A DNA stretch of 64,000 nt from NCBI RefSeq assembly GCF_009936045.1, contig NZ_QWEQ01000005.1, positions 1-64,000 on the forward strand, read 5' to 3'. The notes under the pieces were generated by a model. It had not been told where the DNA came from and made no database searches. It saw only the letters and a program-made list of their open reading frames with translations. Each line of letters starts with the position of its first letter. The first letter of the stretch is position 1. The DNA is from Emergencia sp. 1XD21-10. GTDB taxonomy: Bacteria > Bacillota > Clostridia > Peptostreptococcales > Anaerovoracaceae. This document shows positions 1,707 to 17,467 of this stretch, piece by piece. Position numbers and translations under genes: made by a program.

Positions 1707-2753
1707 TTATTCTTCTTTTGTTTTCTCTTCCAACTCAAGTAAATATCTGTCATAGTCAGACATAAACAATCTATCTTGAACGACACGATATTTCTCAAAC
1801 TCCGTTTCAGCGTGAAGTTTAGCGATTTCTGCAGAAACCTTTCCAGCATCCTGTAAAATACCATAATCAAACATTTCAACAAAGCTATTGAGTCGTTTTT
1901 CCCAATCCTCCATAGTAAGAGGAATACGTCTTAAGGTCATATTTTCAGCAAAATCCAGATATGCAGTTACCATTCGGTTCAGTTGATGCAATTCATTTTC
2001 ACTCAGATAATTTTTGGCAATTGTCACATCGCTTTTTTTAATCTTGCCGTCCGGAGCATCTGCCCATGTAGTAAGTCCCATATGTTCCTTTTGATGGTCG
2101 ACACGTTCTACAATCAATTCAGCAGCCGTATGACCGTGAACCGCAAAGTGCATTTTATTCTGGACTGTTGCATAAAATCTTTTCGTTGTTGCAGAATTTT
2201 TGTCATAGTCTATGGCAGTAGCATAAATATCTGTGATTTTCTGATAAAACTTTCTTTCACTTGCACGTATTTCTCTGATTCGTTCAAGCTGTTCATCAAA
2301 ATACTTATCCGTCAGATAAGTGCCGCGTTTCAGACGTTCATCATCCATAACCCAGCCTTTGATGGTGTAGTCCTTTGCAATCTGATTTACCCATTTACGG
2401 AACTGCACTGCACGCTCAGAATTGACCTTAAAACCAACTGCAATAATCATTTGAAGATTGTAGTGTTTCGTATCACGACTCACCTGACGAGAGCCTTCGG
2501 TTTGAACTATCCGGAAATTCCGGATAGTTGCTTCTTCCTCAAGCTCTGAGTCGGAATAAATCTTCTTAATATGCTCATTGATTGTACGAACATCTACATC
2601 ATATAGTGTGGCCATCATCTTCTGTGTCAGCCATATATTCTCATCCTCATAGCGCATCTCAATACTGTCCTGCTGATCGCCAACTGAGGCAACATAGGTC
2701 AAATATTCCGCTGCACTGGAACGGATGGTTATTTCATCTTTTTTCTTTTTCAA
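1707..2753 (-). CDS. rhuM: RhuM family protein
   Basis: This RhuM ('virulence protein') family member carries the typical blocks IWLTQKMMATLYDV, TINEHIKKIYSD and AVGFKVNSERAVQFRKW. RhuM proteins have a helix-turn-helix-like N-terminus and are common passengers of type I restriction loci; their biochemical role is unsettled. An ATG at 2804 overlaps the end of the upstream gene but has no ribosome binding site. A TTG at 2753 follows AAAGGAGG by seven bases and gives the natural N-terminus KKKKDEITIRSSAAEYL, so I chose that start (348 residues). It is the last gene of the hsdR-DUF262-rhuM run; about 100 bp separate it from the Nudix gene. Confidence 0.85.
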   Translation of the reverse strand: MKKKKDEITIRSSAAEYLTYVASVGDQQDSIEMRYEDENIWLTQKMMATLYDVDVRTINEHIKKIYSDSELEEEATIRNFRIVQTEGSRQVSRDTKHYNLQMIIAVGFKVNSERAVQFRKWVNQIAKDYTIKGWVMDDERLKRGTYLTDKYFDEQLERIREIRASERKFYQKITDIYATAIDYDKNSATTKRFYATVQNKMHFAVHGHTAAELIVERVDHQKEHMGLTTWADAPDGKIKKSDVTIAKNYLSENELHQLNRMVTAYLDFAENMTLRRIPLTMEDWEKRLNSFVEMFDYGILQDAGKVSAEIAKLHAETEFEKYRVVQDRLFMSDYDRYLLELEEKTKEE

Positions 2754-2784
2754 ATAGGATGCCTCCTTTAACGTTCCCAGATTA

Positions 2785-4851
2785 TTATTCTGCCTGTACA
2801 TCATAGGATTGCTTCACAATTTCCATAATTTGATCTAATTCATCCTGATGCTCCATAAACAATTCTACATCACCATTTCCCCAACGACCTAAACCTGTAA
2901 TATCCTTGCAGATACCGTTAGGATCATTAATCTCTGAAAACTTCATATTAATCGAAATACGCAATCTTTGTTTCTGGAAGACAATATCAACAAAATTAGT
3001 ATCCAGCTTATAAGCAACATACAACTTTTTATATTCCTTCTTCACCGCTGGAGATAAGTTCATAATACGCTTATCCAAAGACTCAAACAGCATTCTTGTA
3101 AAAGCATTAACATCATATGATTCTAAGGAATACTTCTGCACTGTTTTTTCTTCTGCTTGATATGGTGCTAGTTCTGCAGCTGTTAAAGTTGGATATGGCC
3201 AAATAGTTTCTGCTTTCTTTGCTAATTCATTTGCTCTCTCTTGGATGTGTTTCTCATTCCATTCATTCTGCAAAACCACATATTTATTAAGCCTAAGTGC
3301 ACTTTCCTTAAATCCACCCGGCATATCCATCTTATCCAAGAAAGGCCTGTCACTCATCTCGGAATTATATGCAGTCAAAGTAAGATTGCCAATTGTATGT
3401 AAATATTTCTTCTGTACCTCCTGCCACTCAGGGCCAAGATCAGTTTGCCACTCCAAAGAAAGATTTTTGTTTTGCGGCATAATATGCTCAATGGTGTAAT
3501 TTTCTATAGTAATTGGAGCTTTGTTTTCAAAATTTTCCAAGCGACTTAGAATATAATTTCTAGCACGCATATTATAAATATCACGATTTACGAATGCGCC
3601 TTCAAACTTATCGTTATCCGGAAATTCTTTATAAGTATCCTGCATTACAAAGAATGCCTTAACAGAATTCAGGTAATCATCTGGTTTAATATAATTCTTC
3701 AACGTTGCAAAAGTCTTGTTCATCGAATTAGTCGGAATTTCGCAAATTGCACGTCTCAGGACATAGCTAATACAAAGCTTCAGAATTTCCTTCAACTCAT
3801 CTGATGTTATCAGTTCTTCGGTACAGTCATGATGAATTTTCAGTAAGAACGGATAAGATACTTCCATTCTCAAATCAATAATATCTTCATATAACTTCTT
3901 TAAATCCGTGTCAGAATTTCGCTTAAATACGATGTTAGTGTAATATTTTGCGTAGTCCAGCAAATCTTGACATAGTTCTCTAATACTTCCAAATTCGCAG
4001 TTCAAGTGATACAACTTGAACTCTTCATATACACGTCCTTGCTTTGGAATACGAGAAAGCTTCATGGTCAAGTAATGGCGGAAAAAAGCATCCATTACAG
4101 ATCCTTGCGTTTCATAAATAAACAGTTGTTCCATAGGCCGCCAGAGATGCTCATATACATAGGTTTGCTCTGATGGCTCTAATCCCATCAAAACATAGTT
4201 ACGAATCAAATCAGATTCTGAAAGTTCCTTACCGGTAGAGTTCAAGCTTTCAAAAATTGCCTGTGCATCGTCTACAGTACGGTCTAACGTGATATTAACA
4301 ATCTGTAATTTCCCAATTGACTCGTATACCTCTGCAGGCTGAATTTCTTTATCGGCCAGCTTGTTAGCGAAAAAGTTGTAATTTTCAATTAGCCTTGATC
4401 GAGTACCTTCTGCAATTGGCTTTTCCTCAACAAGGCTTATAAGAATGTCCCGATCTGTTTCGGTTAACAGTAACTTATACCGTTCATCACCATTTTCGTA
4501 CTCATTTTTTAGAAGCATATTATCTATACGACGAGCATTAATTGTTGTGTCACCAGGATTCTTTATTGCATAATCGCGCAAAGCCAGGAGAAGAAGAGTT
4601 AACGTAGTCATTCGCTGCTGCCCATCAATAATCATATACTTCTGAACTCCTGTTGGCATTGCCTGCTCAGCAATATTAACAATAGATCCAACAAAATGAC
4701 CAGCTTTACCTTTTCTCTGCATCTCTACAATATCGTTCCAAAGTCGTTTACACTGATCAATGTCCCAGCTGTAAAATCGCTGATAAACTGGAATCAAAAA
4801 CTGTTTATTTCCATTTAATATCTCATAGATATTGCCTTTACGTGCATCCAT
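2785..4851 (-). CDS. DUF262 + DUF1524 (GmrSD-like) nuclease with DUF5655-like tail
   Basis: The 688-residue protein begins with a DUF262 domain (IPVYQRFYSWD at about 20-30, DGQQRMTT at 76-83, the NTP-binding/hydrolysis motif). A DUF1524 HNH-type nuclease domain follows (EHIMPQ near residue 454, then HTIGNLTLTAYNSEMSD). The C-terminus (RLRISINMKFSEI, GLGRWGNGDVE) looks like DUF5655. DUF262 and DUF1524 are the GmrS and GmrD halves of type IV enzymes that cut glucosylated or otherwise modified phage DNA, and single-chain fusions are common. All key motifs look intact. The start has a good ribosome binding site (GGAGGTGCGGT) 12 bp after the hsdR stop. Anti-phage function is inferred from the family and location. 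Confidence 0.9.
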   Translation of the reverse strand: MDARKGNIYEILNGNKQFLIPVYQRFYSWDIDQCKRLWNDIVEMQRKGKAGHFVGSIVNIAEQAMPTGVQKYMIIDGQQRMTTLTLLLLALRDYAIKNPGDTTINARRIDNMLLKNEYENGDERYKLLLTETDRDILISLVEEKPIAEGTRSRLIENYNFFANKLADKEIQPAEVYESIGKLQIVNITLDRTVDDAQAIFESLNSTGKELSESDLIRNYVLMGLEPSEQTYVYEHLWRPMEQLFIYETQGSVMDAFFRHYLTMKLSRIPKQGRVYEEFKLYHLNCEFGSIRELCQDLLDYAKYYTNIVFKRNSDTDLKKLYEDIIDLRMEVSYPFLLKIHHDCTEELITSDELKEILKLCISYVLRRAICEIPTNSMNKTFATLKNYIKPDDYLNSVKAFFVMQDTYKEFPDNDKFEGAFVNRDIYNMRARNYILSRLENFENKAPITIENYTIEHIMPQNKNLSLEWQTDLGPEWQEVQKKYLHTIGNLTLTAYNSEMSDRPFLDKMDMPGGFKESALRLNKYVVLQNEWNEKHIQERANELAKKAETIWPYPTLTAAELAPYQAEEKTVQKYSLESYDVNAFTRMLFESLDKRIMNLSPAVKKEYKKLYVAYKLDTNFVDIVFQKQRLRISINMKFSEINDPNGICKDITGLGRWGNGDVELFMEHQDELDQIMEIVKQSYDVQAE

Positions 4852-4863
4852 ACCGCACCTCCA

Positions 4864-7800
4864 TTACTTCTTTTCTCCGTAAGAAACAGTATCTTCTGCC
4901 ACCTTGCTTAGTTCTATTTCAGACACATATTTATATAGTTTTTCCTCTTTTCGTGGTTCCACATTATCTGTCCAAAGCTCACACTGACTAATTACTGTGC
5001 TTATTGCAAAATCGTAATCTTCAGGCGGATACTTATATTTCTTAAGGAGTCGCTTAACCATCTTACGCATTTGTGCTCTAGCGGTTTCTTTTTTCTGCCA
5101 ATCGATAGTGCGATTTTTTCGAAGCATTTCTGTAAGTTCTCTTGTCAGAGCAATCAATTCATCATTCTTATAAAAATCTTTGATATGCTCTGGTTTTGTA
5201 AGGGCGTCATAAAATGCCAGCTCTTCTTGCGAAAGCCCCAACTCTTGACCATTCTTATAGAGATTTGCAATTTCCTCCGCAGTTTTAAGCAGTTCTTTAA
5301 TAACTTCTTCATTGGTGATTAATCCGTTATAATAAGAGTTCATCAGTTGCGCTATCTTTTCTGAGAATTTTTGTGACTGCACCACATTTGTTCTCTTGTA
5401 AAGAGCCACCTGCTCAGCCATAAGTTTTTTCAAAATCTCAACAGCTATATTCTTTTCCTTCATTCTAGAGATTTCATCCAAGACAGCCGGATCAAACAAG
5501 CTGAAATTTTCACCGCCACTTTTGCTGCTGTCAAATAAGCTGATGACACCTTCGCTCTGTACTGCCGCTTTCAAAAGTTCATTGATTTGATCGTTAATCT
5601 CGGTAAGCGACAGGCTCTTTCCACCAGTACCACCGTAAGTGATTTTAATAACCGTAGATCGCAAAGCCTCCATATAAGCTGCTTCATGCCTTTCCTGTTC
5701 TGTTGTCATACTGGAACAAAGCGAATGAGACTGTTTCAAAAGCATAGCTTCCTTCAAGAACAAATCTTTTCTTTCTGGTACACTTGCATCGAGAATAAAG
5801 TTTACACCACCCGTAATAAGCTTAGCCATTGTAAGCGGAGATCCACCTACAAAGCCGCTAAAATCAAAGCCATGCAGTAAATCCTTGCAGACCTGCAGCT
5901 TTTCTTGAAACTTCGGATAGGCCATCTTTGCAATGTTCATGTCACCATATTTAGACTGATCGCGCTTCGTATATTCTTTCATCGCCGCCTTTAGAGCTGA
6001 CGCAATTCCAACATAGTCAACGATCAATCCACCTTCTTTATCCTTGAATACACGGTTAACACGAGCTATTGCCTGCATCAAGTTATAGCCATGCATTGGC
6101 TTGTACACATACATGGTAGCCAAAGAAGGTACATCAAATCCGGTAAGCCACATATCTACAACGATGGCTATTTTCATCGGATCGTTATTATCTTTAAATT
6201 TTCTCGCGAGTTCTTCCTTGTGCGCTTTGGTTCCGATAATCTCTTTCCAATCTTCTGGATCATTGTTACCGCCAGTCATGACCACACCCACTTTATCTAT
6301 CCATGTAGGTCTAATTTTTAAGATACGGCGGTAAATTTTCATTGCAATCGGACGAGAATACGCCACAATCATAGCTTTACCTGTCAGAAGATTTGCTCTG
6401 TATTTTTCATAATGTTCAACGATATCATCACAAAGAGATTCAATCGTAGAATCTGCTCCCAGTACGCTTTCCATCTGGCCAAGCATCTTTTTGCTCTTCT
6501 CAATCGTTTGCGCGTCGGATTGTTGCTCCAAGACATCATAAGTGGAATCAATTAACGCCAGCGTATTCTCATCCAACTTTAGATGAACCACACGACTTTC
6601 ATAATAAACCGGACGAGTAGCACCATCTTCCACTGCCTGTGTCATATCATAAACATCGATATAGTCACCAAAAACCTCACGAGTATTTCTGTCCTTAGCT
6701 GAGATCGGTGTACCAGTAAAGCCAATAAATGTAGCATTCGGCAATGCGTCATGAATAACACGGGCATTACCAATTACCGTATGCGCTTCCTTTTCACCGT
6801 TTTCATTCTCTGACATAACGATTTTCTCATCAAAACCATACTGCCCACGATGTGCTTCGTCTGCCATAACAACAATGTTTCTACGTTCCGATAAAGCTTT
6901 CTCTCCACGCTCAAACTTAAACATCGTAGTAAATATGATTCCATTCGCACTTCTGCCATCAAGAAGTGACTTCAAATGTTCCTTGCTCTCTGCTTGTACC
7001 GGTGTCTGACGCAAAAAATCTGCGCATTGTGAGAACTGTGCATAAAGCTGATCATCCAAATCAATACGGTCTGTCATAACTACGATTGTTGGACTGTCTA
7101 ATGCATCCTGCAATAAATGTGCATAGAAAACCATAGATAACGACTTACCAGAGCCCTGTGTATGCCAGAACACGCCACCCTTGCCGTCGGTCTTAGTTGC
7201 TACCTTTGCTTTTTCGATTGCTTTGCGGACTGCGAAATATTGATGATATCCGGCTAATACTTTGAAACGACTATTGCTAACGCCTGAGAAAAGAATAAAA
7301 TTCTTCAAAATATCAAGTAAACGTTCCTTTTGGAACATACCCTCATAGAAAGTTTCAAAGGACGCATACGCAGTATCTTCGTAATTACCGTCTTTTGTTT
7401 TCCATTCCATAAAGCGATCTAATCCGGAAGTGATCGTTCCTGCTTTATTCGTAGACAAATCGCTAATTACACAGATTGCGTTATAATAAAAGATAGATGG
7501 TATGTCCTGCATATAATTGCGAATCTGATGGAATGCATTCTCCGCTCCCACTTCATCTTTCGCCGGACTCTTTAATTCCATCAAAACAAGCGGCAATCCA
7601 TTTATAAATAGAATAATATCCGGACGACGGTTGTTTCCGTTTTCAAGGAATGTAAACTGATTTACCACATAGAAAGAGTTGTTCTTTATATTTTGATAAT
7701 CAATCAAACGTACAATCGACGATTGCTCCTCGCCCTTCACAAAGAACTTAACCGTGATGCCATTTTGCAGATAATCCATAAATATCATATTCTTCTGCAG

Positions 7801-8025
7801 CAGGCTTCCGGTATCAAAATTCTTCAATTTGGCCATTGCCTCATCAATAGCTTCTACAGGCAGACCACGGTTGATACGCACCAAACTATCTCTCAGAATA
7901 GAATCCAGAATCGGACTGGTATAATCTCTATCAAAATCCGGAGCGTAGAGGTGGTCATAGCCCATGTTTTCAAACAATTCAATGATTGCCTGTTCATATG
8001 TATCCTCTGTAAATAAATTTGGCAT
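4864..8025 (-). CDS. hsdR: Type I restriction endonuclease subunit R
   Basis: HsdR is the DNA-translocating and cleaving subunit of the type I restriction complex. The protein shows the PD-(D/E)XK nuclease signature (RPDII at about 135, then MELKSP near 149-154), Walker A (TQGSGKS at about 289-295) and a DEAH box (DEAHRGQYG from about 389), followed by the second helicase domain (AIARVNRVFKDKEGG) and a C-terminal helical domain. Its length of 1,053 residues is normal. The ATG at 8025 follows AGGAGGTTGAAC; the TTG two codons upstream lies inside that ribosome binding site. It is the first gene downstream of the hsdS/recombinase region and is intact. Confidence 0.95.
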   Translation of the reverse strand: MPNLFTEDTYEQAIIELFENMGYDHLYAPDFDRDYTSPILDSILRDSLVRINRGLPVEAIDEAMAKLKNFDTGSLLQKNMIFMDYLQNGITVKFFVKGEEQSSIVRLIDYQNIKNNSFYVVNQFTFLENGNNRRPDIILFINGLPLVLMELKSPAKDEVGAENAFHQIRNYMQDIPSIFYYNAICVISDLSTNKAGTITSGLDRFMEWKTKDGNYEDTAYASFETFYEGMFQKERLLDILKNFILFSGVSNSRFKVLAGYHQYFAVRKAIEKAKVATKTDGKGGVFWHTQGSGKSLSMVFYAHLLQDALDSPTIVVMTDRIDLDDQLYAQFSQCADFLRQTPVQAESKEHLKSLLDGRSANGIIFTTMFKFERGEKALSERRNIVVMADEAHRGQYGFDEKIVMSENENGEKEAHTVIGNARVIHDALPNATFIGFTGTPISAKDRNTREVFGDYIDVYDMTQAVEDGATRPVYYESRVVHLKLDENTLALIDSTYDVLEQQSDAQTIEKSKKMLGQMESVLGADSTIESLCDDIVEHYEKYRANLLTGKAMIVAYSRPIAMKIYRRILKIRPTWIDKVGVVMTGGNNDPEDWKEIIGTKAHKEELARKFKDNNDPMKIAIVVDMWLTGFDVPSLATMYVYKPMHGYNLMQAIARVNRVFKDKEGGLIVDYVGIASALKAAMKEYTKRDQSKYGDMNIAKMAYPKFQEKLQVCKDLLHGFDFSGFVGGSPLTMAKLITGGVNFILDASVPERKDLFLKEAMLLKQSHSLCSSMTTEQERHEAAYMEALRSTVIKITYGGTGGKSLSLTEINDQINELLKAAVQSEGVISLFDSSKSGGENFSLFDPAVLDEISRMKEKNIAVEILKKLMAEQVALYKRTNVVQSQKFSEKIAQLMNSYYNGLITNEEVIKELLKTAEEIANLYKNGQELGLSQEELAFYDALTKPEHIKDFYKNDELIALTRELTEMLRKNRTIDWQKKETARAQMRKMVKRLLKKYKYPPEDYDFAISTVISQCELWTDNVEPRKEEKLYKYVSEIELSKVAEDTVSYGEKK

Positions 8026-8061
8026 GTTCAACCTCCTGTATTTTTCGTTATATTTCTATGG

Positions 8062-8075
8062 TAAACAAGAATTTA
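8062..8075 (+). repeat. hsdS inversion site A
   Basis: TAAACAAGAATTTA, plus orientation, 6 bp beyond the hsdS stop codon. On the plus strand it is followed by GCGGCTTAA and the antisense of the hsdS 3' end, the same context as site D on the other strand. With site B it flanks the C-terminal half of hsdS as an inverted pair. Confidence 0.8.
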
Positions 8076-8080
8076 GCGGC

Positions 8081-9292
8081 TTAAAGGTCGATAGCAGAGA
8101 CATCAAGTTCGCAGGACATGAGCTTAGATAACAATGCATCTCTAAGTTGTGATAAACGAGCATTCTCTTCTTGGTTAGATATAACAGTACTTGTCATTGG
8201 AATGACCAGTTCATTAAATTTACTGAGAGTATCTTCATCAGGCAGAGGAAGTTCCATAGCTTTAACTCTGTCTCTTGGAAGTTCCGTTTGTCCAGTGCTT
8301 CCTGTGTGTTGAGCTTCAATTTCACTTTCATGAGAAAGTCCCCAAAAACCGATATAGCTTTGTAATATTGAATCTTTTGGGCGAACAATAGTTACATGGG
8401 AATCTACAGTCATGTTATTTGCTTCAAACCAAACTTGAGCAACACGCCCTAGCGTTCCGGTGCCTGTAGAATTAATGAGTAGATCACCTTTTGAAATCCA
8501 TTTCTCATTGATTTTCTTTGGAAGATGTCGTCGAGCGAGAGAAATGTCAATGGTGTGATCACGAATGCATTTTTGGTTAAGAACTATTTGATCGCTGCTA
8601 TCATCATATTTAGGCGCGATACCTCTGGTAACCAAGCTGGAAATTGCATCAATTGTTGTAATCTTCCAGTTTTCGGGGAGAGTCCCATCCGAAAGAGCAT
8701 AATCACAAAACCAGTCCTTATAAATTGCTAATGCTTGCTCAAGTAAATTCTTGTTTATCTTATCGTTCACTTTTATTTTTTCATCTATATTCAACAGAAA
8801 ACGAGCGATACGCTCTTGAGTTTCTTTTCCTTTGGGGAAAGAAATCACAATTTCTTCCTGCAATCTTTTTCGATTTATCTCTGTCTGACCGGTTGAGCCT
8901 TCTGCAAGTGTTTCAATTTTAGGTTGGAACGCTTTAATCGCATACCCATAATAAATAGAATCAATTTCCTCGGTTGGACGAAGAAGTATCATATGTCCAT
9001 CTATTGTTGTTGGGATTGGCACATCATACAATTGAGCAACACGACCAGCCGTTCCAGTACCGGTAGAGTTAATCAGCACATCTCCTGGTTGAAGCATTTT
9101 ATCAGCGGGCACTTTCTTTTTTGAACAGTCATGTAATCTTGATTCCTCATACTTGATTTCAAAATTTCGATTACATTTCTGATTTAACACACGAACTGTA
9201 TTCTCATTTTCTCTTTCTACATATTTAGGTGGAATGCCTTTAGACATAAATGATGTGATTTCTCCCAAACATCTTTTTCTCCACTCTGTCAT
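8081..9292 (-). CDS. hsdS: Type I restriction specificity subunit S, complete copy
   Basis: HsdS reads the bipartite DNA target and bridges HsdM to HsdR. This 403-residue copy has the full layout: target recognition domain 1, a central helical spacer (DEKIKVNDKINKNLLEQALA), domain 2, and a C-terminal repeat (ARLSQLRDALLSKLMS). The two recognition domains are clearly related to each other (both have VLNQKC, LINSTGTGT and GRVAQ), so the two half-sites may be alike. Inversion site B falls inside the central spacer at NKNL, and site A lies just past the stop, so the whole C-terminal half can flip. The ribosome binding site is AGGAAGGTGAT. It is 12 bp downstream of the recombinase gene. In this assembly the copy is joined and should be functional. 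Confidence 0.93.
   Translation of the reverse strand: MTEWRKRCLGEITSFMSKGIPPKYVERENENTVRVLNQKCNRNFEIKYEESRLHDCSKKKVPADKMLQPGDVLINSTGTGTAGRVAQLYDVPIPTTIDGHMILLRPTEEIDSIYYGYAIKAFQPKIETLAEGSTGQTEINRKRLQEEIVISFPKGKETQERIARFLLNIDEKIKVNDKINKNLLEQALAIYKDWFCDYALSDGTLPENWKITTIDAISSLVTRGIAPKYDDSSDQIVLNQKCIRDHTIDISLARRHLPKKINEKWISKGDLLINSTGTGTLGRVAQVWFEANNMTVDSHVTIVRPKDSILQSYIGFWGLSHESEIEAQHTGSTGQTELPRDRVKAMELPLPDEDTLSKFNELVIPMTSTVISNQEENARLSQLRDALLSKLMSCELDVSAIDL
8744..8757 (-). repeat. hsdS inversion site B
   Basis: TAAACAAGAATTTA on the minus strand, in frame inside the central conserved region of hsdS (codons for INKNL). It divides the gene into N-half (8757-9292) and C-half (8081-8743). Confidence 0.8.
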
Positions 9293-9304
9293 ATTATCAC
9301 CTTC

Positions 9305-10291
9305 CTAACCGATATATTTCTTGTGAGCCAACTTAACATTGCTCTGTTTGACCATTGCGTACTGCAAGGTCGTATCTATTCGTTTATGCCCCAAAAGCTG
9401 CTGTAACTGCTCAATCGGCATTCCTTTATCAATCGCCATCGTTGCAAGCGTCCGGCGGAACTTATGCGGATGGACTTTGGGAATGTCCAACTGCTTACCC
9501 ATTTCACGCAGGCGAGATTCGATACCGCCTATCTTGATTCTCTCATGCGGAGAATGCAGAGTGACGAACAATGCCGGATTATTATCCGTTCTGCTGTCAA
9601 TATAGTTTTGCAGATGAATCTTTGTCCTAGCATCAAAGTATACGATGCGTTCCTTATCGCCCTTACCGAAAACCACACACTCCCGCTCATTAAAATTGAT
9701 GTCCGCTTTGTTCAGCAAAACCATTTCACCGATACGCATTCCGGTAGAGGCCAGCATATCAATTATTGCCAAGTCTCGAAGTTCTGTGCAGCTGTCACGC
9801 ATTTTCTCCAAATCCTCGTCCGTATAGGTTTCCTTGATATTAGTTGCCGTTTTCACCTTATGGATACGGCGAACAGGGCTTTTCAAAATATAGTCCTCGT
9901 CCTCCAACCAAGAGAAAAAACTTGACAGAATTCTACGGATATTATCTATCGTCACACGACTGGACTGGTTCTTGCTCTGGTAATCCGTCAGATAGGAACG
10001 CAAATCCTCTGTCTGAATATGACGGATACTTTTGTCTATCGAAGCCACCATCGTTTCAATGGTTGTGCGGTAATATTTCAGCGTTTTCTCTGAACAGCCT
10101 TCAATCCGCTTTGCCGAAACAAAAGCATCTATCAGCTTTGGGTTATCGTCTGTATCTTTCTTTTCTGTCTGTGCTGTAATCTCACAGCCAAACAATGTGT
10201 TCTCAAGCACCTTTTGCAGCTGCTGCATTTGGGCGTTGTCGAGATGTGGCAGCATTTGCTGCACCACCTCTGAAATAATTTGTTGTTTCAT
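9305..10291 (-). CDS. Tyrosine recombinase of the hsdS inversion system
   Basis: This 328-residue phage-integrase/XerC-type recombinase has the full catalytic set: Arg186 (STGMRIGE), Lys210 (FGKGDKER), His276 and Arg279 (HPHKFRR), His302 (LLGHKR) and Tyr311 (TLQYAMV). An N-terminal SAM-like domain spans about residues 50-140. It lies between two hsdS loci that share four 14-bp sites. This matches known systems in which a dedicated recombinase shuffles type I specificity genes (for example the pneumococcal ivr locus). It probably exchanges strands at TAAACAAGAATTTA; that is inference from position. It lies on the segment between sites B and C and would itself be turned round by a B-C inversion. 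It is upstream of hsdS and probably co-transcribed. Confidence 0.9.
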   Translation of the reverse strand: MKQQIISEVVQQMLPHLDNAQMQQLQKVLENTLFGCEITAQTEKKDTDDNPKLIDAFVSAKRIEGCSEKTLKYYRTTIETMVASIDKSIRHIQTEDLRSYLTDYQSKNQSSRVTIDNIRRILSSFFSWLEDEDYILKSPVRRIHKVKTATNIKETYTDEDLEKMRDSCTELRDLAIIDMLASTGMRIGEMVLLNKADINFNERECVVFGKGDKERIVYFDARTKIHLQNYIDSRTDNNPALFVTLHSPHERIKIGGIESRLREMGKQLDIPKVHPHKFRRTLATMAIDKGMPIEQLQQLLGHKRIDTTLQYAMVKQSNVKLAHKKYIG

Positions 10292-10354
10292 AGGTCATTC
10301 TCCTTCAAATTTATTTTCCAGAGAACGACTCAACGGCAGTTCCGTTGGCTTTAG

Positions 10355-10380
10355 CTCCCGCCGTTGGTGGGAGTTTTATT
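10355..10380 (+). terminator. Hairpin with T-run, plus strand
   Basis: CTCCCGCC and GGTGGGAG form an eight-pair stem with a GTT loop, followed by TTTTATT on the plus strand. It faces against the minus-strand operon, so it would stop transcription coming from the left, for example after an inversion. A second small palindrome (CAACGG/CCGTTG, 10331-10347) lies beside it. Confidence 0.55.
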
Positions 10381-10381
10381 C

Positions 10382-10576
10382 TTAATAAAGGTCTATATCA
10401 TCGTGATCTTCTCCATCATAATGATTATAATAATGGAATCCATCTTCGAGTGGTTTTCCACACCTACAGCAAACATCCCAATATCCCCATTCTTCAATTT
10501 CTGATGTAACAGACGATATGGATGAACATTTACAGTAGCCTACTTTTTCAATTGGCACACCTTTAAAATACATCAT
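10382..10576 (-). CDS. Small cysteine-rich (zinc-ribbon-like) protein
   Basis: This 64-residue protein has five cysteines in two clusters (Cys15, Cys17 and Cys36, Cys37, Cys39 in CKC and CCRCGKPLEDG) and an acidic, His-rich tail (YYNHYDGEDHDD). The CxC/CxxC pattern suggests a zinc ribbon. The start has a strong ribosome binding site (AGGGAGGAACACAAA). It sits immediately beside inversion site C, ahead of the recombinase gene, and lies on the invertible segment. I do not recognise a named family. It could be an accessory factor of the recombinase, but only its position supports this. Confidence 0.65.
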   Translation of the reverse strand: MMYFKGVPIEKVGYCKCSSISSVTSEIEEWGYWDVCCRCGKPLEDGFHYYNHYDGEDHDDIDLY

Positions 10577-10591
10577 TTTGTGTTCCTCCCT

Positions 10592-11263
10592 ATGTTAAAC
10601 AAGAATTTAGAGCAGCAAGCTCAGGCTCTTTTTCACTCATTATTTATTGAGAATGCTAACCCAACGTGGAAAGATGGTGTGCTTTCCGACCTTGGAACTG
10701 TAGTCGCAGGTGGAACTCCATCCAAAACAAAGCCAGAATATTACTCCAAGCAAGGCATAGCATGGATTACTCCAAAGGATTTATCTCTTAATAAGTCAAA
10801 ATTTATCTCTCATGGCGAAATTGATATTTCAGAATTAGGATTTTCCAAGAGTAGTGCAACTAAAATGCCAACCGGAACAGTTCTGTTTAGTTCTAGAGCA
10901 CCTATTGGGTACATTGCCATTGCTGCCAATGAAGTAACAACTAATCAGGGATTCAAATCGGTAGTTCCAAATAAAAATATTGGTACAGCCTTTATATATT
11001 ATCTTCTGAAATTTTTATTGCCGACCATTGAGGGAATGGCTTCGGGTTCAACTTTTAAGGAAATATCAGGTGCAGGGATGAAATCTGTCCCTGTTGTAAT
11101 TCCTGATAACGAGACTATCGAAAAGTTCAATGCCTTTTGTACCCCAATCTTCCAACAGCAAGAAGTGCTTGAAGCAGAAAATTCACGACTTGCTGATATT
11201 CGAGATGCATTGTTACCTAAGTTGATGTCTGGTGAGCTTGATGTCTCCGACCTTGACATTTAA
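10592..11263 (+). CDS. hsdS: hsdS C-terminal half cassette, inverted (silent)
   Basis: This is the back half of a specificity gene in the opposite orientation to the operon. It starts with the central-spacer sequence NKNLEQQAQALF, contains one recognition domain (GGTPSKTKPEYY, IAWITPKDLS, PIGYIAI) and ends with the usual C-terminal repeat (RLADIRDALLPKLMSGELDV). There is no ribosome binding site or promoter for this strand; the bases before it are the upstream region of the cysteine-rich gene. Its first codons coincide with site C. Flipping the C-D segment would join it in frame to the neighbouring N-half and give a full hsdS of about 400 residues. Confidence 0.88.
   Translation: MLNKNLEQQAQALFHSLFIENANPTWKDGVLSDLGTVVAGGTPSKTKPEYYSKQGIAWITPKDLSLNKSKFISHGEIDISELGFSKSSATKMPTGTVLFSSRAPIGYIAIAANEVTTNQGFKSVVPNKNIGTAFIYYLLKFLLPTIEGMASGSTFKEISGAGMKSVPVVIPDNETIEKFNAFCTPIFQQQEVLEAENSRLADIRDALLPKLMSGELDVSDLDI
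10596..10609 (+). repeat. hsdS inversion site C
   Basis: TAAACAAGAATTTA, plus orientation, at the first codons of the silent C-half cassette. With site D it forms the inverted pair around the OFF-oriented C-half. Confidence 0.8.
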
Positions 11264-11799
11264 GCCGCTAAATTCTTGTTTATCCTATCATTGAGTGCAA
11301 TTTTATCATCAAACGCCTTCAGGAATGAGCCGATTTTTTCTTGTTCGACTAATGGTGGAACATCAATTTCAAGATTCTTTACCACATCCGTCTGCACACG
11401 CTGTCGCCCTGATGAACCGACCATAGATTTTATTGCTGGTTCTCTTACTTCCGGGCTACAAATGAGATAGTACAAGTAGTCCTTATCAGCGATTCCTTCT
11501 TTTGCTCTAAACACTATATATTCCGTTGAGCCAAACCCGACCTCTCCATCATTTAAGATTGAGACCTGCGCTGTTTTTCCGTTTTCTAAACACGGCGTAA
11601 TTCGTGCCATAATTGTATCTCCATTACGGAACTTCGTACCACCAGAAAAACATTCTTCAACATAATATGGAACATCGCGATAAAATGGGCGAAGCACATC
11701 CATAGGGATTTTCTTAGCTATAGCACCTTTTTTTATTGTTTCTCTCGGATTGAAATCTGCAATATCAGAGAGCTTCTTTTTTGTCCATTCAGATTTCAT
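11260..11799 (-). CDS. hsdS: hsdS N-terminal half, currently split from its C-half
   Basis: This front half of an HsdS (MKSEWTKKKLSDIADFNPRE, then a recognition domain) runs through the central spacer (FDDKIALNDRINKNL) and then ends at AA-stop, because the C-half beyond site D is inverted. The recognition domain differs from both domains in the complete hsdS. The ATG at 11799 overlaps the end of a 24-codon mini-ORF, the arrangement expected for translational coupling. As it stands it would make a 179-residue single-domain S protein. Half-length S proteins can sometimes dimerise into working specificity subunits, so it need not be inactive. Confidence 0.88.
   Translation of the reverse strand: MKSEWTKKKLSDIADFNPRETIKKGAIAKKIPMDVLRPFYRDVPYYVEECFSGGTKFRNGDTIMARITPCLENGKTAQVSILNDGEVGFGSTEYIVFRAKEGIADKDYLYYLICSPEVREPAIKSMVGSSGRQRVQTDVVKNLEIDVPPLVEQEKIGSFLKAFDDKIALNDRINKNLAA
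11269..11282 (-). repeat. hsdS inversion site D
   Basis: TAAACAAGAATTTA on the minus strand, in the codons for INKNL of the N-half gene. It is followed by GCGGCTTAA and then the antisense 3' end of the C-half cassette. Confidence 0.8.
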
Positions 11800-11863
11800 A
11801 CCCAATCGCCTCCAGTTTTTCGCGAATTACAAATTCGTTTATTCTTTCTTGTCCTGTATTCAT
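11789..11863 (-). CDS. 24-codon coupling mini-ORF copied from the hsdM 3' end
   Basis: An ATG three bases after the PIN gene stop opens a 24-residue frame whose end reads IREKLEAIGYEI. The HsdM protein ends IRKKLGAIGYELKQ, so the mini-ORF looks like a copy of the hsdM tail. Its stop overlaps the hsdS N-half start by 11 bp, just as hsdM normally overlaps hsdS. The likely role is to hand ribosomes from the PIN gene to hsdS. It was too short for routine ORF calling. The resemblance is directly visible; the role is inferred. Confidence 0.6.
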   Translation of the reverse strand: MNTGQERINEFVIREKLEAIGYEI

Positions 11864-11866
11864 AAG

Positions 11867-12916
11867 CTAACTCTCACTTTCAGTTTCATCCTCATCCGTT
11901 CTATAAGCATCTTCAACCGAATAAGTAGCATCATCCAGCATCTTAACATCTATGCCTACGTTGATTGTGTCCTGTGTTTTTCCTCCATCTTTCAATTCGT
12001 ATATAAACTGCAAAGCTGCCTCAATATAATATTCAATTGCATTCTCGTCCGAATTCAAGGATTCAATATTATCAATGCTAATCAAATGAGCTGTAGTTGA
12101 AGTAATCAACCGTCCTTTTTCAACAAGGCCAAAGTCTCGCTCTATTATCTGCACAGAAAAATCTCCAGAATTTAACCAATCAACAATTTCCTTATTTTCA
12201 TCATAATCTTCAATTGGTTGATAGGAATATTTGTCAATTTCCTTTGCCCACGCTTCTAACTGCACCTTAACTTCATTTTCATTTTTGCATATGAACAGTG
12301 ATGAAGCTGATACATTTTCTGCAAACTCCTTTAGCAGAAATTCTCCAAAAGCATTATCTTTGGAATAGTATATGATTTTTGAGTTGTGGTGTTTTAATGC
12401 AAATTCCAAAACACTTTCCCATAGCAATGCATCCTTAAATCCTTTATCAGACTTTTTGTCTTTTCCTTCAAAAGGAGGCAACTTACTAAATGCACGATTT
12501 ACAATACTTTCAAATCTATTATTAGAAGCAATCGGTATCTCTATAACTTCATTCAACCCTTCTGAGATTTCCTTCTTATATTCCTCAATCTTAGTTTGTA
12601 TGTATTCCGGATAATTTATTTCCGGATTCTCATATATAGAATACTCAGGGAACCGTTTCTTCGATATCGTGTTTTTATAAGCTATAAGTAATTCATCATG
12701 CTTTTCTATAATCTGCTTTTTCATTTCGCTCCAGACAACTGATGGAATTGCTATGGTTACCTGATTATATATATCAAGCTGATTAATCATATCAATTACA
12801 TTTTCAAATGTTGAATTAAAGCTAAACGTTGTGAAATCTGCTTTCTTTTCATATGCTTGAAACAGAGCATTCGTATCAAAAATCAAACAATACGTTATTT
12901 CATTGCTTGAGCTCAT
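11867..12916 (-). CDS. PIN-like nuclease domain protein embedded in hsdM-hsdS
   Basis: This 349-residue protein has a PIN-type acidic set: Asp14 (LIFDTNALFQ), Glu64 (SVVWSEMKK), Asp162 (KGFKDALLWES) and Asp187 (YYSKDNAFGEF). This order fits the PIN-like domain of the DUF4935 kind. The N-terminal 200 residues are the domain. The remainder is acidic, of unknown fold, and ends DEDETESES. PIN domains are usually Mg-dependent ribonucleases. The ATG at 12916 overlaps the hsdM stop by 17 bp (GGATATGAGCTC), so it is translationally coupled to hsdM. A longer frame to 12985 has no support. Its place between hsdM and hsdS suggests a toxin-like or abortive module tied to the restriction system; this is inference. 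Confidence 0.8.
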   Translation of the reverse strand: MSSSNEITYCLIFDTNALFQAYEKKADFTTFSFNSTFENVIDMINQLDIYNQVTIAIPSVVWSEMKKQIIEKHDELLIAYKNTISKKRFPEYSIYENPEINYPEYIQTKIEEYKKEISEGLNEVIEIPIASNNRFESIVNRAFSKLPPFEGKDKKSDKGFKDALLWESVLEFALKHHNSKIIYYSKDNAFGEFLLKEFAENVSASSLFICKNENEVKVQLEAWAKEIDKYSYQPIEDYDENKEIVDWLNSGDFSVQIIERDFGLVEKGRLITSTTAHLISIDNIESLNSDENAIEYYIEAALQFIYELKDGGKTQDTINVGIDVKMLDDATYSVEDAYRTDEDETESES

Positions 12917-14408
12917 ATCCGATCGCCCCCAGCTTCTTCCTGATCTCTCCCTCCAGCTCATGTGACTTTGCAAACATTTCCGCAAGTTCAGATGTTAACC
13001 GATCCATCTTTTCTTCAAATGGCTCATCGTCATCTTCTTGTTCTTCAATGCCTACATATCTGCCCGGAGTAAGGATAAAGTCTTGCTTTTCAATTTCCTG
13101 CAAATCGGCAACGGCGCAGAAGCCTTTAACATCTTCAAGTGTTCCGTCAACAAAAGCTTCATAGGTATCTGAAATCTTCTTGATATCATCATCTGTCAAC
13201 TCTCGAAGCTTACGACTCACCATCGTTCCCATCTTGCGAGCGTCAATAAATAAAGTCTTTCCCGGTTGTTTCTTCTGTTTATTGATAAACCAGAGCGAAA
13301 CAGGAATCTGCGTTGTATAGAATAGCTGAGTAGGCATTGCAACAATGCACTCAACTAAATCGGCATTGATAATGTTCTTACGAATATCACCCTCTCCACC
13401 TGACTGAGAAGATAGTGAACCGTTCGCTAATACCATACCAATACGACCTGCTGGTGCAAGATGAAAAATCATGTGTTGAAGCCATGCAAAGTTGGCGTTT
13501 CCTGCTGGTGGTGTTCCATATTTCCATCTCTGATCTTCTTTTAGTTTATCCAATCCCCAATCGGAAAGGTTAAACGGAGGATTAGCCATAATATAATCTG
13601 CTCGCAATGTTGGATGGCGATCATCTAGAAACGTATCTGCAGCATAGGCTCCAAGATCTGGTTCAATTCCACGAATAGCAAGGTTCATCTGTGCCATCTT
13701 CCATGTAGTAGGGTTTGAGTCCTGACCATAGATAGAAATATTGCTGATATTACCACTGCGATTCTCAACAAACTTCGCAGACTGAACAAACATACCTCCT
13801 GAACCACAACAAGGGTCATATACTCGTCCCTTGAAAGGTTTCAAGACTTCCACTAAAGTACGTACTACGCATGAAGGCGTAAAGAATTCACCACCACGTT
13901 TCCCCTCTTGCTCAGCAAACATAGAAAGACAATATTCATAGGTACGACCCAAGATATCTTTTTCACTGCCGTGTTCAATCATCTGGATATTGGTAAATAA
14001 ATCTACCACATCTCCCAATCTTCGTTTGTCCAATTCTGGACGTGCGAAATTCTTAGGAAGAATGTCTTTCAATCGTTTATTTTCTTTTTCAATTGCACGC
14101 ATAGCCTCATCAATAACTGTACCAATCTCTGGCGTATGTGCTTTTGCTGCAATCTCACTCCAACGTGCACCTGCTGGTACAAAGAAAATACCCTCAGAAG
14201 TATATTCATCAATATCTTCCTCGAATCCGTCGCCTTCTTCAACAAGTTCCTGATATTTATCGTCAAATCTATCTGAGATATATTTCAAGAAAATCAACCC
14301 CAGGACAACGTTCTTATATTCTGATGCATCCATATTGCCACGAAGTACGCAGGCCGCATCCCATATTTGTTTTTCAAATCCAATATCGGCTGTATTTTTA
14401 TCTGCCAT
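12900..14408 (-). CDS. hsdM: Type I DNA methyltransferase subunit M
   Basis: HsdM is an N6-adenine methyltransferase that works with HsdS to protect the host and with HsdR to restrict. The 502-residue protein has the N-terminal HsdM helical domain (FEKQIWDAACVLRGNMDASEY begins it), the SAM-binding motif (DPCCGSGGMF from residue 198) and the catalytic NPPF (276-279). The C-terminus ends IRKKLGAIGYELKQ. The ATG has a strong ribosome binding site (AAAGGAGGAAAACTAAA). It follows a small XRE gene by 47 bp and overlaps the PIN gene start. Everything looks intact. Confidence 0.96.
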   Translation of the reverse strand: MADKNTADIGFEKQIWDAACVLRGNMDASEYKNVVLGLIFLKYISDRFDDKYQELVEEGDGFEEDIDEYTSEGIFFVPAGARWSEIAAKAHTPEIGTVIDEAMRAIEKENKRLKDILPKNFARPELDKRRLGDVVDLFTNIQMIEHGSEKDILGRTYEYCLSMFAEQEGKRGGEFFTPSCVVRTLVEVLKPFKGRVYDPCCGSGGMFVQSAKFVENRSGNISNISIYGQDSNPTTWKMAQMNLAIRGIEPDLGAYAADTFLDDRHPTLRADYIMANPPFNLSDWGLDKLKEDQRWKYGTPPAGNANFAWLQHMIFHLAPAGRIGMVLANGSLSSQSGGEGDIRKNIINADLVECIVAMPTQLFYTTQIPVSLWFINKQKKQPGKTLFIDARKMGTMVSRKLRELTDDDIKKISDTYEAFVDGTLEDVKGFCAVADLQEIEKQDFILTPGRYVGIEEQEDDDEPFEEKMDRLTSELAEMFAKSHELEGEIRKKLGAIGYELKQ

Positions 14409-14455
14409 TTTAGTTTTCCTCCTTTGAAGATTAATCTAGGACTATTTCCACAATA

Positions 14456-15147: not shown

Positions 15148-15603
15148 TTATATTGAGGAAAAAACAAAATCTTTATCCCTCTGATTGATATATTTCGTTC
15201 CACCACCTGTTTTTCGGTTAATAAGGTCAATAACTATATCTAACATCAATTGTCGCAGTGCTCTTGCTTTATCACTTTCAGATAAAAGCATCTCCATATT
15301 TAAAAATGCACGAAAATCAAATACTCCGAGCACCTTAGTTTTGGTAGGGACACAAATGTCCTTACCAAAATCCTTTGCACACTCTAAAAAAGCTTTCAAT
15401 TTCTTACCCCGGAGCACCTGATATCCATTTTCAGTAAGTTCTTCTCCGTATTGCTCCAAATAGTGACTAATTGTTCTTATATCGACTTCAAAAAAATTGG
15501 CTGTTATTTGTCGAGTTACAAAGATTTTCCCAGCCCATAAAATACCGTCAATTCCTGACTTCTGCTGTATTTCCTCTATGGCAATTTCATTATTTAATAT
15601 ATT
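15148..15603 (-). pseudogene. RhuM-like DNA-binding protein, broken at both ends
   Basis: The frame reads NNEIAIEEIQQKSGIDGILW, then VTRQITANFFEVDIRTISHY, FGKDICVPTKTKVLGVFDFR and KTGGGTKYINQRDKDF. This is the N-terminal part of the RhuM-related 'DNA-binding protein' family found beside restriction and Fic genes. Family members have about 300 residues or more; here only about 150 remain. No ATG precedes the conserved start (a stop lies at 15604-15606) and the frame breaks at the C-side after KDFVFSS. It is different from the intact RhuM at 1707-2753. Confidence 0.7.
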
Positions 15604-15700
15604 TTACCTGTCCAGCCTCGAATTTGTTAAAGCCTCCATCATACTTACCCTCCTGTTTCTCAAGTCATGAAATCATCTTAAAACGTCCCCTTTGTCACCC

Positions 15701-15934
15701 TGCTTACCGCGCCCTTTCTTCCCTCACCAGCTTCGTCACTACTTCCGCAGTCGTCTGCACCCAATCCTCCTGCACTTCGCTCGCTTTCTTGGGCAGACTT
15801 TGCATGAGACGTACCGCTGCTTACTGCTCCCCTTCTGTCCTAACCAGCTTCGTTACAACTTCCGCAGTCGTCTGCACCCAATCCTCCTTCACTTCGCTCG
15901 CTTTGTTGGGCAGACTTTGCATGAGACGTACCGC
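15701..15934 (-). repeat. Two 117-bp tandem repeats copying the rlmD 3' end
   Basis: Units at 15701-15817 and 15818-15934 are near-identical, and a third, partial unit is the last roughly 45 bp of the rlmD gene itself. The period of 117 equals 39 codons. On the minus strand each unit carries an ATG-to-stop frame of 33 residues (15704-15805 and 15821-15922) starting MQSLP and containing EDWVQTTAEVVTKLVR. Several differences between units fall at third codon positions (three Val codons). No ribosome binding site precedes the ATGs. Whether the frames are translated is unknown. Confidence 0.8.
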
Positions 15935-15937
15935 TGC

Positions 15938-17467
15938 TTACCGCGTCCCTTCGGTCCTAGTAAGCAGGGTTACGGCTTCACAATGCACGCCCCAAGGGAA
16001 CATATCCACAGGCGTCCCCTTCTCAAACCGATACCCATGCTCGCCCAGATATTTCACATCCCGCGCCAGGGTAGCCGGATCGCAGGACACATAGACGATT
16101 CGCTCAGGCTCCACAGAAACCACAGTTTTCAGTAACGTTTCCTCACAGCCTGCCCGAGGCGGATCCAAAATCACCACGTCGGCTTTTTCCACCCGAAGTC
16201 CGGCATCGTCCGCTGCAGCGCCTTCGCCTGAGACCAGCTTCGGCAGTTCTTCTTCGGCACGGCCGCACACATATCTGGCATTGACGATGTGATTGATGAC
16301 CGCATTGCGGTTAGCGTCGAGGACGGCGCCTTTGACCGACTCGATACCGATGACGCGACCCACTTTGTCATAATCCAGCACGCCATCGTGGCGCGCCATA
16401 TAAGCCTCTTCCATCTGCCGCGCTGCGAAAAGCCCGATGGTGCCCACGCCGCAGTAAAGGTCCAGCACTGTCTCCTCGCCGGAAAGGTCGGCATATTCCA
16501 TCGCCTTGGCGTAAAGTCGCTCCATCTGCACCGGATTCACCTGATAAAAAGAATGAGGTGAAATTTCAAAGACCAGATCGCCCACTTCTTCATTGATGAC
16601 AGGTTTTCCGGCAAGGGTAATCAACTCCTCCCCCATAACACTGCCCGGCATCGCGCCGTTTTTACCTTTGCAGACGCTGATGACCACGCTCTCCAAGCTG
16701 TATTCCACGCCGTCATCGGATACCGGCAGTTCATAAATGACATCATCCAGCATTTCCACCAGCTTGGCAGCATTAGGAATCCCTTTGCCGTTGATGACCA
16801 GCACTACCATCACCTCGCCGGTGCCACGGGCAGTTTTCACCACCAGATGGCGCATTAAACCCTTTTCCCACTTGGGGTCGTAAGCCGTAATATGGTCGCT
16901 TTCCATAAACTGACGCAAAGCCTCCGCCGCTGCCATAGCAGGCGCTGACTGAATCAGACAGTCGTAGCAGTCCACTACCTCGTGGCTCTTTGCACGATAA
17001 AAGCCCACCGCCGGCTCGCCCAAATTCTCCACGATACCGCCTTTGCGGGTGATAATGCCGCCGGTCCAAACAGGCATAGAAGCCTTGTTCCGATAGCGAA
17101 AAGGCTCCTCCATACCGATAATCGACTCCATCTCTGGCTCCAAAATTCCGCCCAGCCGTACCAGCTTATCGCGCACCTGCTTTTCCTTGAGTGCAAGCTG
17201 CGCCTCATAGGAAAGATTGCTGTAAGGGCAGCCGCCGCACTGACTGCTATATTCGCACATTGGCGTAATCCTGTCCGGTGACGGCTCCACTAGGCGAAGC
17301 AGCTTTCCGAAGGCGTAGTTCTTCTTTACCTTAGTAAGCTCCACTTCTGCAAGATCGCCGACCACAGCGCCCTTTACAAAGATCGCAAAGCCATTACTTC
17401 TTCCGAGCCCCTGCCCTTCGTTTGTCATGTCCTCTATTTTGATTTGAACGATTTGTCCTTTTTCCAT
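15938..17467 (-). CDS. rlmD: 23S rRNA (uracil-C5)-methyltransferase, RlmD/RumA family
   Basis: This 509-residue SAM-dependent enzyme makes 5-methyluridine in 23S rRNA. The family in Firmicutes often modifies two sites (RlmCD type). It has an N-terminal TRAM domain, an iron-sulfur cluster site (Cys71, Cys77, Cys80 in CEYSSQCGGCPY; a further Cys near 170), a SAM motif (LDLYCGVGTIGLF), an ILDPPRAGC motif and the catalytic Cys in YVSCDPATLARD. The ATG overlaps the upstream DEAD-box gene by 74 bp. The last codons (RTEGTR) are the start of a tandem duplication that continues past the stop. Confidence 0.92.
   Translation of the reverse strand: MEKGQIVQIKIEDMTNEGQGLGRSNGFAIFVKGAVVGDLAEVELTKVKKNYAFGKLLRLVEPSPDRITPMCEYSSQCGGCPYSNLSYEAQLALKEKQVRDKLVRLGGILEPEMESIIGMEEPFRYRNKASMPVWTGGIITRKGGIVENLGEPAVGFYRAKSHEVVDCYDCLIQSAPAMAAAEALRQFMESDHITAYDPKWEKGLMRHLVVKTARGTGEVMVVLVINGKGIPNAAKLVEMLDDVIYELPVSDDGVEYSLESVVISVCKGKNGAMPGSVMGEELITLAGKPVINEEVGDLVFEISPHSFYQVNPVQMERLYAKAMEYADLSGEETVLDLYCGVGTIGLFAARQMEEAYMARHDGVLDYDKVGRVIGIESVKGAVLDANRNAVINHIVNARYVCGRAEEELPKLVSGEGAAADDAGLRVEKADVVILDPPRAGCEETLLKTVVSVEPERIVYVSCDPATLARDVKYLGEHGYRFEKGTPVDMFPWGVHCEAVTLLTRTEGTR

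What the first reader, a model, noticed from the sequence alone, without database searches (positions are those of the whole stretch)
8062..11282. Phase-variable type I restriction: four 14-bp sites at hsdS half-gene joints
TAAACAAGAATTTA occurs at 8062 (+), 8744 (-), 10596 (+) and 11269 (-). Each copy is in the NKNL codons or beside an hsdS end. A-B and C-D are inverted pairs around the C-halves of two hsdS loci; one locus is joined (ON) and the other split (OFF). A-D and B-C inversions would swap C-halves between N-halves and would also turn the recombinase and small-protein genes. Up to four combined specificities plus OFF states can be made by the neighbouring tyrosine recombinase, all of whose catalytic residues are present.
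Basis: partly seen in the sequence, partly recalled or inferred. Interest (0 to 1): 0.85.

Follow-up and report, generated by a model that had tools for sequence, protein, structure and literature searches.

The report
Restriction specificity switch, one on
This is a shuffling module that lets a gut bacterium change which DNA sequence its restriction enzyme reads; in its relatives exactly one of the two recognition genes is almost always complete, which suggests that switching changes the target without turning the enzyme off.

Summary
The 14-bp site occurs exactly four times in the 3.39-Mb genome, all at or beside the joints of two hsdS loci of one type I restriction-modification operon. Two N-halves (both with start codon and ribosome-binding site) lie in line with a Xer-like tyrosine recombinase between them; each is followed by a C-half flanked by inward-pointing sites. 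All four N/C fusions are open, 396-403 aa.

The kind is known (phase-variable type I R-M). New, as far as I could search, is a rule: of 82 four-site loci with the recombinase in the window's orientation, 79 have exactly one C-half joined and the other reversed (38 N1-on, 41 N2-on, 1 both, 2 neither); independent inversion predicts half. The state shows no signal on the recombinase tree. Two Lactococcus plasmids differ by what two long inversions would make, and two relatives carry duplications ending exactly at directly repeated sites. I infer long inversions plus direct-site exchange, with flipping of a single C-half rare; selection against both-on and both-off remains a rival.

The parts
12900..14408 (-). 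hsdM, type I methyltransferase subunit
   Evidence: Pfam N6_Mtase E 2e-110, HsdM_N; PADLOC MTase_I
11867..12985 (-). PIN_12 domain protein between hsdM and hsdS1 (accessory, role unknown; also in L026, L027, L076)
   Evidence: Pfam PIN_12 E 6e-29; tblastn hits in 3 of the 80 relatives
11260..11799 (-). N1: N-half of hsdS1, at present ending in the stub NKNLAA* (split). ORF caller gives start 11805 TTG; ATG at 11799 with GGAGG upstream
   Evidence: ORF, Pfam Methylase_S, start region
11269..11282 (-). Site D (14 bp), end of N1
10580..11263 (+). C1: C-half of an hsdS, reversed relative to N1; pocket P1 between sites C and D
   Evidence: ORF, Pfam Methylase_S E 3e-20
10596..10609 (+). Site C (14 bp), head of C1
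10382..10576 (-). Small ORF, 64 aa, with cysteine clusters CKC and CCRC; no family match; lies between P1 and the recombinase
   Evidence: no hit in Pfam, NCBIfam or PADLOC; no tblastn hit in the 80 relatives
9305..10291 (-). Tyrosine recombinase, 328 aa, XerA/XerC-like, with the R-K-HxxR-H-Y residues expected of the family (motif recalled)
   Evidence: Pfam, NCBIfam; alignment to PDB 4a8e shows the motif stretches matched
8081..9292 (-). hsdS2, joined: N2 (9292-8758) + C2 (8743-8081), 403 aa, own ribosome-binding site
8744..8757 (-). Site B (14 bp), N2/C2 joint
8062..8075 (+). Site A (14 bp), non-coding, just beyond the hsdS2 stop
4864..8031 (-). hsdR, type I restriction subunit
   Evidence: Pfam HSDR_N, SWI2_SNF2, T1RH-like_C

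Best explanation
The locus is a phase-variable type I R-M system whose specificity subunit is assembled from two N-halves in line and two exchangeable C-halves. Each C-half sits in a pocket between two inward-pointing 14-bp sites (TAAA, a 6-nt core, TTTA) acted on by the tyrosine recombinase encoded between the pockets. Shown by sequence: layout, frames, four open fusions, different arrangements in relatives, breakpoints at the sites. Inferred: the recombinase joins sites in different pockets. Inverted pairs (A-D, B-C) give long inversions that swap C-halves; direct pairs (A-C, B-D) give excision, duplication or re-insertion that moves the forward C-half from one N-half to the other. The two sites of one pocket seldom recombine, so one C-half stays forward and one reversed, and nearly always exactly one hsdS is complete. 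The cell thus changes target rather than switching off. Present state of the window: N2-C2 on.
For: Four sites and frames. Both N-halves have a start and ribosome-binding site, so joining alone can decide. One-joined rule 79 of 82 in the recombinase-forward state, binomial p 4e-20. No tree signal: 28 changes against 27.0 (sd 2.3) for 500 shuffles, on 81 loci including two later set aside. Cores: N1-end and N2-end sites found independently share the 6-nt core in 85 of 86 loci, against 16% of pairs between loci, as expected of a strand-exchange region. Lactococcus plasmids with the same recombinase and N-halves (100% as printed): pJM2A (Ca+,Cb-) and pUCCL627F (Cb+,Ca-), which two long inversions would interconvert. 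L061 and L078: tandem copies run exactly from site C to site A, 3618 and 2274 bp, no mismatch, identity ending 0-1 bp outside the site. The long blastn match of the window to L026, L027 and L029 stops at the edge of site A, and that to L027 at the edge of site D. In recombinase-reversed loci, where one-joined is automatic, the pockets are still opposite in 6 of 7.
Against: No reads and no experiment; activity in this strain is not shown. Exceptions exist: L085 both on, L080 and L136 both off, L065 reversed with equal pockets. Of 35 incomplete or ambiguous loci printed, 14 could be judged by hand: 11 opposite, 3 equal (L032, L067, L090). Close pairs L054/L058 and pJM1A/pJM2A show a C-half flipped within its own pocket, which fits a short flip more simply than the route I favour. 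L061 and L078 come from MAG records, and their duplications could be an assembly over an excised circle's junction. 6 of 7 reversed loci is weak (p 0.06), and reversed loci may be too young to have lost an inherited parity. The tree is a quick one, 13 of 76 inner branches well supported.
Confidence: 0.6

Rival explanations
1. All inversions, including the short ones, happen freely, and selection (or assembly of the majority state) removes both-on and both-off cells, leaving one joined hsdS.
For: Short in-place flips are the simplest reading of L054/L058 and pJM1A/pJM2A; a few both-on and both-off loci exist.
Against: Both-on looks tolerable elsewhere: 13 of 13 loci with the second recombinase type in which both N-end 10-mers could be read have both C-halves forward (in L209 the N-halves are interrupted), and in the window's own genome a locus of that recombinase type has two hsdS ORFs of 393 and 329 aa. 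Both-on and both-off are similarly rare (1 and 2 of 82), which selection would reach only by coincidence. Pockets stay opposite in 6 of 7 reversed loci, where nothing is gained by it.
Confidence: 0.27
2. One reading: two independent ON/OFF cassettes (A-B and C-D) giving four specificities plus OFF states.
For: Site geometry allows it; 16 arrangements can be reached by inversion.
Against: It predicts half of the recombinase-forward loci both on or both off; 3 of 82 are.
Confidence: 0.05
3. In this genome the locus is a frozen remnant: the arrangement was made in an ancestor and the recombinase no longer acts.
For: No direct evidence of switching in this strain; the island is shared with distant hosts at 87-94% identity, so it may have arrived in this state.
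Against: Recombinase ORF intact with the motif residues; four identical sites; four open fusions.
Confidence: 0.08

Closest known systems
Type I R-M 'shufflon' of Lactococcus megaplasmids pMPJM1/pMPJM2 (PMC6458302, passages read)
   Same: Probably the same family: plasmids of strains JM1 and JM2 in my set (pJM1A, pJM2A) have a similar operon order (with a DUF3800 gene before hsdR), four sites and a recombinase 62% identical to the window's
   Different: [quoted passage not shown] no sites, states or rule are given in the passages read. That pJM1A/pJM2A are its pMPJM1/pMPJM2 is my inference from strain names
Pneumococcal SpnIV tvr locus (PMC6265443, abstract and two result sections read)
   Same: hsdM and hsdR around shuffled half-hsdS segments with a central tyrosine recombinase; excision and re-integration of circles
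   Different: tvr repeats all point the same way and guide N- and C-type segments by two repeat types; here sites alternate in orientation, so inversions are also possible
Pneumococcal SpnIII (ivr/cod) with PsrA (PMC4948785, passages read)
   Same: Tyrosine recombinase PsrA acts on a 15-bp inverted repeat and swaps the 3' half of hsdS
   Different: Three hsdS units with further 85- and 298-bp repeats that PsrA does not use, and one expressed hsdS (the last point recalled); here one short site serves all four places and both N-halves have start and ribosome-binding site
Listeria monocytogenes CC8/CC4 hsd loci (PMC4783014 and PMC7662400, passages read)
   Same: hsdRMS with two hsdS genes flanking an integrase or recombinase gene, four allelic states by inversion
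   Different: The two hsdS genes are oppositely oriented and use two different repeat pairs (CC8); the second gene lacks a proper start and a promoter (CC4)

Membership tests
Type I restriction-modification system | hsdR, hsdM and hsdS in one operon | tested here: met
   Pfam and PADLOC; all on one strand except the reversed C1
Type I restriction-modification system | Methylation or restriction of a bipartite target | not testable with these tools
   needs methylome or restriction assay
Phase-variable (inverting) type I R-M | More than one hsdS unit sharing inverted repeats with a recombinase gene nearby | tested here: met
Phase-variable (inverting) type I R-M | Different arrangements in otherwise near-identical loci | tested here: met
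   met in relatives (Lactococcus plasmids, L054/L058), not in this strain
Phase-variable (inverting) type I R-M | Rearrangement within one clone, dependent on the recombinase | not testable with these tools
   no reads, no mutant
tvr-type (excision-reintegration) locus | Only directly oriented repeats guide shuffling | tested here: not met
   sites alternate in orientation
tvr-type (excision-reintegration) locus | Circular intermediates through direct repeats | tested here: inconclusive
   C-to-A hybrid junctions in L061 and L078 fit a circle or a tandem duplication
SpnIII/Listeria type | Second hsdS oppositely oriented and silent for lack of start or promoter | tested here: not met
   N1 and N2 point the same way and each has start and ribosome-binding site; promoters not tested

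The most novel reading that the evidence does not exclude
A built-in exclusion by geometry: the four-site module recombines only between pockets, so one C-half is always forward and one reversed, and every switch passes directly from one complete specificity to another without a dual or an off state. A related recombinase type keeps the opposite parity (both C-halves forward), so parity would be an inherited design feature of each family.
Probability: 0.4. Interest if true: 0.7.

Novelty: new variant of a known kind. Interest (0 to 1): 0.5.

Why it matters
In several phase-variable R-M systems the single active hsdS is set by position: the other copy lacks a start or a promoter. Here both N-halves can be translated, yet relatives under names from several bacterial classes almost always keep exactly one hsdS complete. 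If the cause is site choice by the recombinase, this is a simple genetic device for exclusive choice, open to test with a plasmid reporter. It would also give many gut Bacillota, and plasmid-borne loci in dairy Lactococcus, a way to change their restriction target without a gap in defence.

Tried and rejected
Independent pockets: rejected by the counts. A first automatic classifier missed loci with a longer gap to the recombinase and mixed in the second recombinase type; it was replaced by a search for TAAA-6 nt-TTTA with equal cores. In one search L061 was scored both-on and L112 one-on because their extra units were mispaired; both, and L078, were set aside as having more than four sites. 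Six repeated records were dropped before counting (L059, L096, L141, L177, L203, L204). Kept as separate loci although closely related: the Lactococcus plasmids L138, L139, L140, the Ligilactobacillus plasmids L133, L134, L136, and L054/L058. Of 176 loci read, 103 had both pockets; the other 73 were cut by contig ends, had no such site (many of the second recombinase type) or were partial. Of 35 incomplete or ambiguous loci I could not judge 21. L135 (Ligilactobacillus) has an extra hsdS fragment and did not fit the scheme. I considered that sites recombine only if the sequence beside the core matches (head with head, tail with tail); this would explain fixed parity but not the frequent N1-on/N2-on changes, so I do not claim it. 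That the 10-mers of the second recombinase type are recombination sites is not shown; they lie in coding sequence, and L105 itself has only one. No structure was predicted. A term search in PMC7096588 returned no passage. For print, six searches of the held library were made; none of the listings or of the passages read showed the one-joined rule or this four-site layout in detail, but subscription papers are mostly missing and I read passages and sections, not whole papers.

Full report
Observation. The 14-bp sequence TAAACAAGAATTTA is present exactly at the four reported places and nowhere else in the genome. Read on the minus strand the order is hsdM, a PIN_12 gene, N1, site D, C1 reversed, site C, a 64-aa ORF, recombinase, N2, site B, C2 forward, site A, hsdR. 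N1 ends in the stub NKNLAA*, N2 is joined to C2 (403 aa). All four N/C combinations would be open: N1C1 396, N1C2 399, N2C1 400, N2C2 403 aa. N1 has GGAGG before ATG 11799 and N2 has AGGAAGG before ATG 9292, so neither is silent for want of a start.

What could happen. A token simulation of inversions reaches 16 arrangements. Eight have the recombinase in the present direction; four of these have exactly one joined hsdS, two both, two none. In the eight with the recombinase reversed one is always joined, because N1 and N2 then face the same pocket. From the present state B-C inversion makes N2-C1; A-D inversion keeps N2-C2 and leaves N1 unjoined.

Relatives. Further loci came from genome searches (stretches), plasmids (11 of 13 hits fetched), one phage record (1 of 4 hits) and viral contigs (22): 176 loci in all with the window and the second locus of its genome. 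In the main recombinase type the sites read TAAA-core-TTTA with 13 different 6-nt cores among the 103 rows with both pockets. N1-end and N2-end sites, found without requiring equal cores, agree in 85 of 86 loci (exception L032); two different loci agree in 16% of pairs. Constant ends and a core that varies between but not within loci are what a recombinase's strand-exchange region should look like.

The rule. After dropping six repeated records and three loci with more than four sites, 82 loci with the recombinase forward and both pockets readable (the window among them) have 41 N2-on, 38 N1-on, 1 both (L085), 2 neither (L080, L136): 79 of 82 opposite, binomial p 3.8e-20, Fisher p 1.1e-19. Some of the 82 are close kin that differ in arrangement, such as three Lactococcus plasmids. 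Seven loci have the recombinase reversed: 6 opposite, 1 equal (L065). Of 35 incomplete or ambiguous loci printed I judged 14 by hand: 11 opposite (L040, L063, L070, L094, L097, L098, L099, L173, L182, L211, L222), 3 equal (L032, L067, L090). N1-on and N2-on are spread over the recombinase tree as if at random (28 changes; shuffles 27.0, sd 2.3; 379 of 500 at or below 28; 81 loci, two of which were later set aside; a quick tree with 13 of 76 inner branches well supported), so I take the loci as nearly independent samples.

How C-halves move. In four Lactococcus plasmids the recombinase, N1 and N2 are the same (100% as printed). pJM2A and pUC073A hold Ca forward behind N1 and Cb reversed; pUCCL627F holds Cb forward behind N1 and Ca reversed, which A-D plus B-C inversion would make; pJM1A holds Ca in both pockets, reversed in P1 and forward behind N2, and lacks Cb. 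L054 and L058 share N1, N2 and recombinase; the P1 C-half is flipped, the P2 C-half is a different one. Other pairs share a C-half across pockets: L026/L027 97%, L075/L083 95%, L072/L217 98%, L135/L136 96%. L061 and L078 carry tandem copies of recombinase-N2-C2 running exactly from site C to site A (3618 and 2274 bp, no mismatch, identity ending 0-1 bp outside the site). Sites A and C are direct repeats, so this is the product of direct-site crossing-over, or an assembled circle junction. Between the window and L026 and L027 the operon is 87-94% identical in blocks between about 1723 and 14437, but the long match stops at 8076, the edge of site A, in L026, L027 and L029, and at 11269, the edge of site D, in L027; beyond it only the conserved C-half tail matches for about 0.1 kb. 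C-halves are thus replaced site to site.

Why one on. Either the recombinase avoids the two sites of one pocket (about 0.55-0.9 kb apart, facing each other) or both-on and both-off cells are removed. Against removal: loci with a second recombinase type (54-62% identical; 10-mer GATTTGTCGA at three or four similar places, not proven to be sites) have both C-halves forward in 13 of 13 readable loci (L191, L192, L193, L209, L213, L214, L216, L224-L228, L230), so two joined hsdS genes are tolerated there; both-on and both-off are similarly rare; and pockets stay opposite in 6 of 7 reversed loci, where it brings nothing. For removal: the in-place flips named above. I favour site choice, at moderate confidence.

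Known or new. Inverting type I systems are well known: a REBASE survey with perfect inverted repeats of at least 20 bp found 3.9% of hsdS genes (PMC7394358, the first part of its results and two later sections read). SpnIII, SpnIV/tvr and the Listeria loci work similarly but differ in repeat layout. The Lactococcus pan-plasmidome paper names a type I R-M shufflon on the JM1/JM2 megaplasmids without detail in the passages read. I found no statement of the one-joined rule in six searches of the held library. Hence: a variant of a known kind, with a new and testable regularity.

Noticed in passing
L105 (G000:C59:131000-147000): A second type I R-M locus on the same contig with a recombinase 56% identical to this one and two hsdS ORFs of 393 and 329 aa; other loci of that recombinase type have both C-halves forward.
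   Followed up: partly
window 1723-14437: Island with hsdRMS, a PIN_12 gene and two further genes (365 and 688 aa, 1707-4851) that is 87-94% identical in blocks to Streptococcus sp. Marseille-Q5986 (L026) and Hominisplanchenecus murintestinalis (L027), while the hsdS halves mostly differ: it looks like recent transfer between distant hosts with specificity turnover.
   Followed up: partly
window 8081-9292: N2 and C2 are 39% identical over 142 aa, so the present HsdS may read a near-palindromic target.
   Followed up: no
L112 5823-10200: A viral-contig locus with three hsdS units and one recombinase: first two joined, third reversed.
   Followed up: no
L084, L103: Small contigs with hsdM divergent from the recombinase and both ends lying in a site: another layout, or assembly breaks at a mixed locus.
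   Followed up: no
L095 and L096: The compared parts of the R-M locus are identical in two MAG records named as a Lachnospiraceae and a Peptococcaceae bacterium; one bin may be contaminated.
   Followed up: no
window 15471-16094: A plus-strand ORF antisense to a 509-aa gene shows two near-identical repeats of about 38 residues.
   Followed up: no
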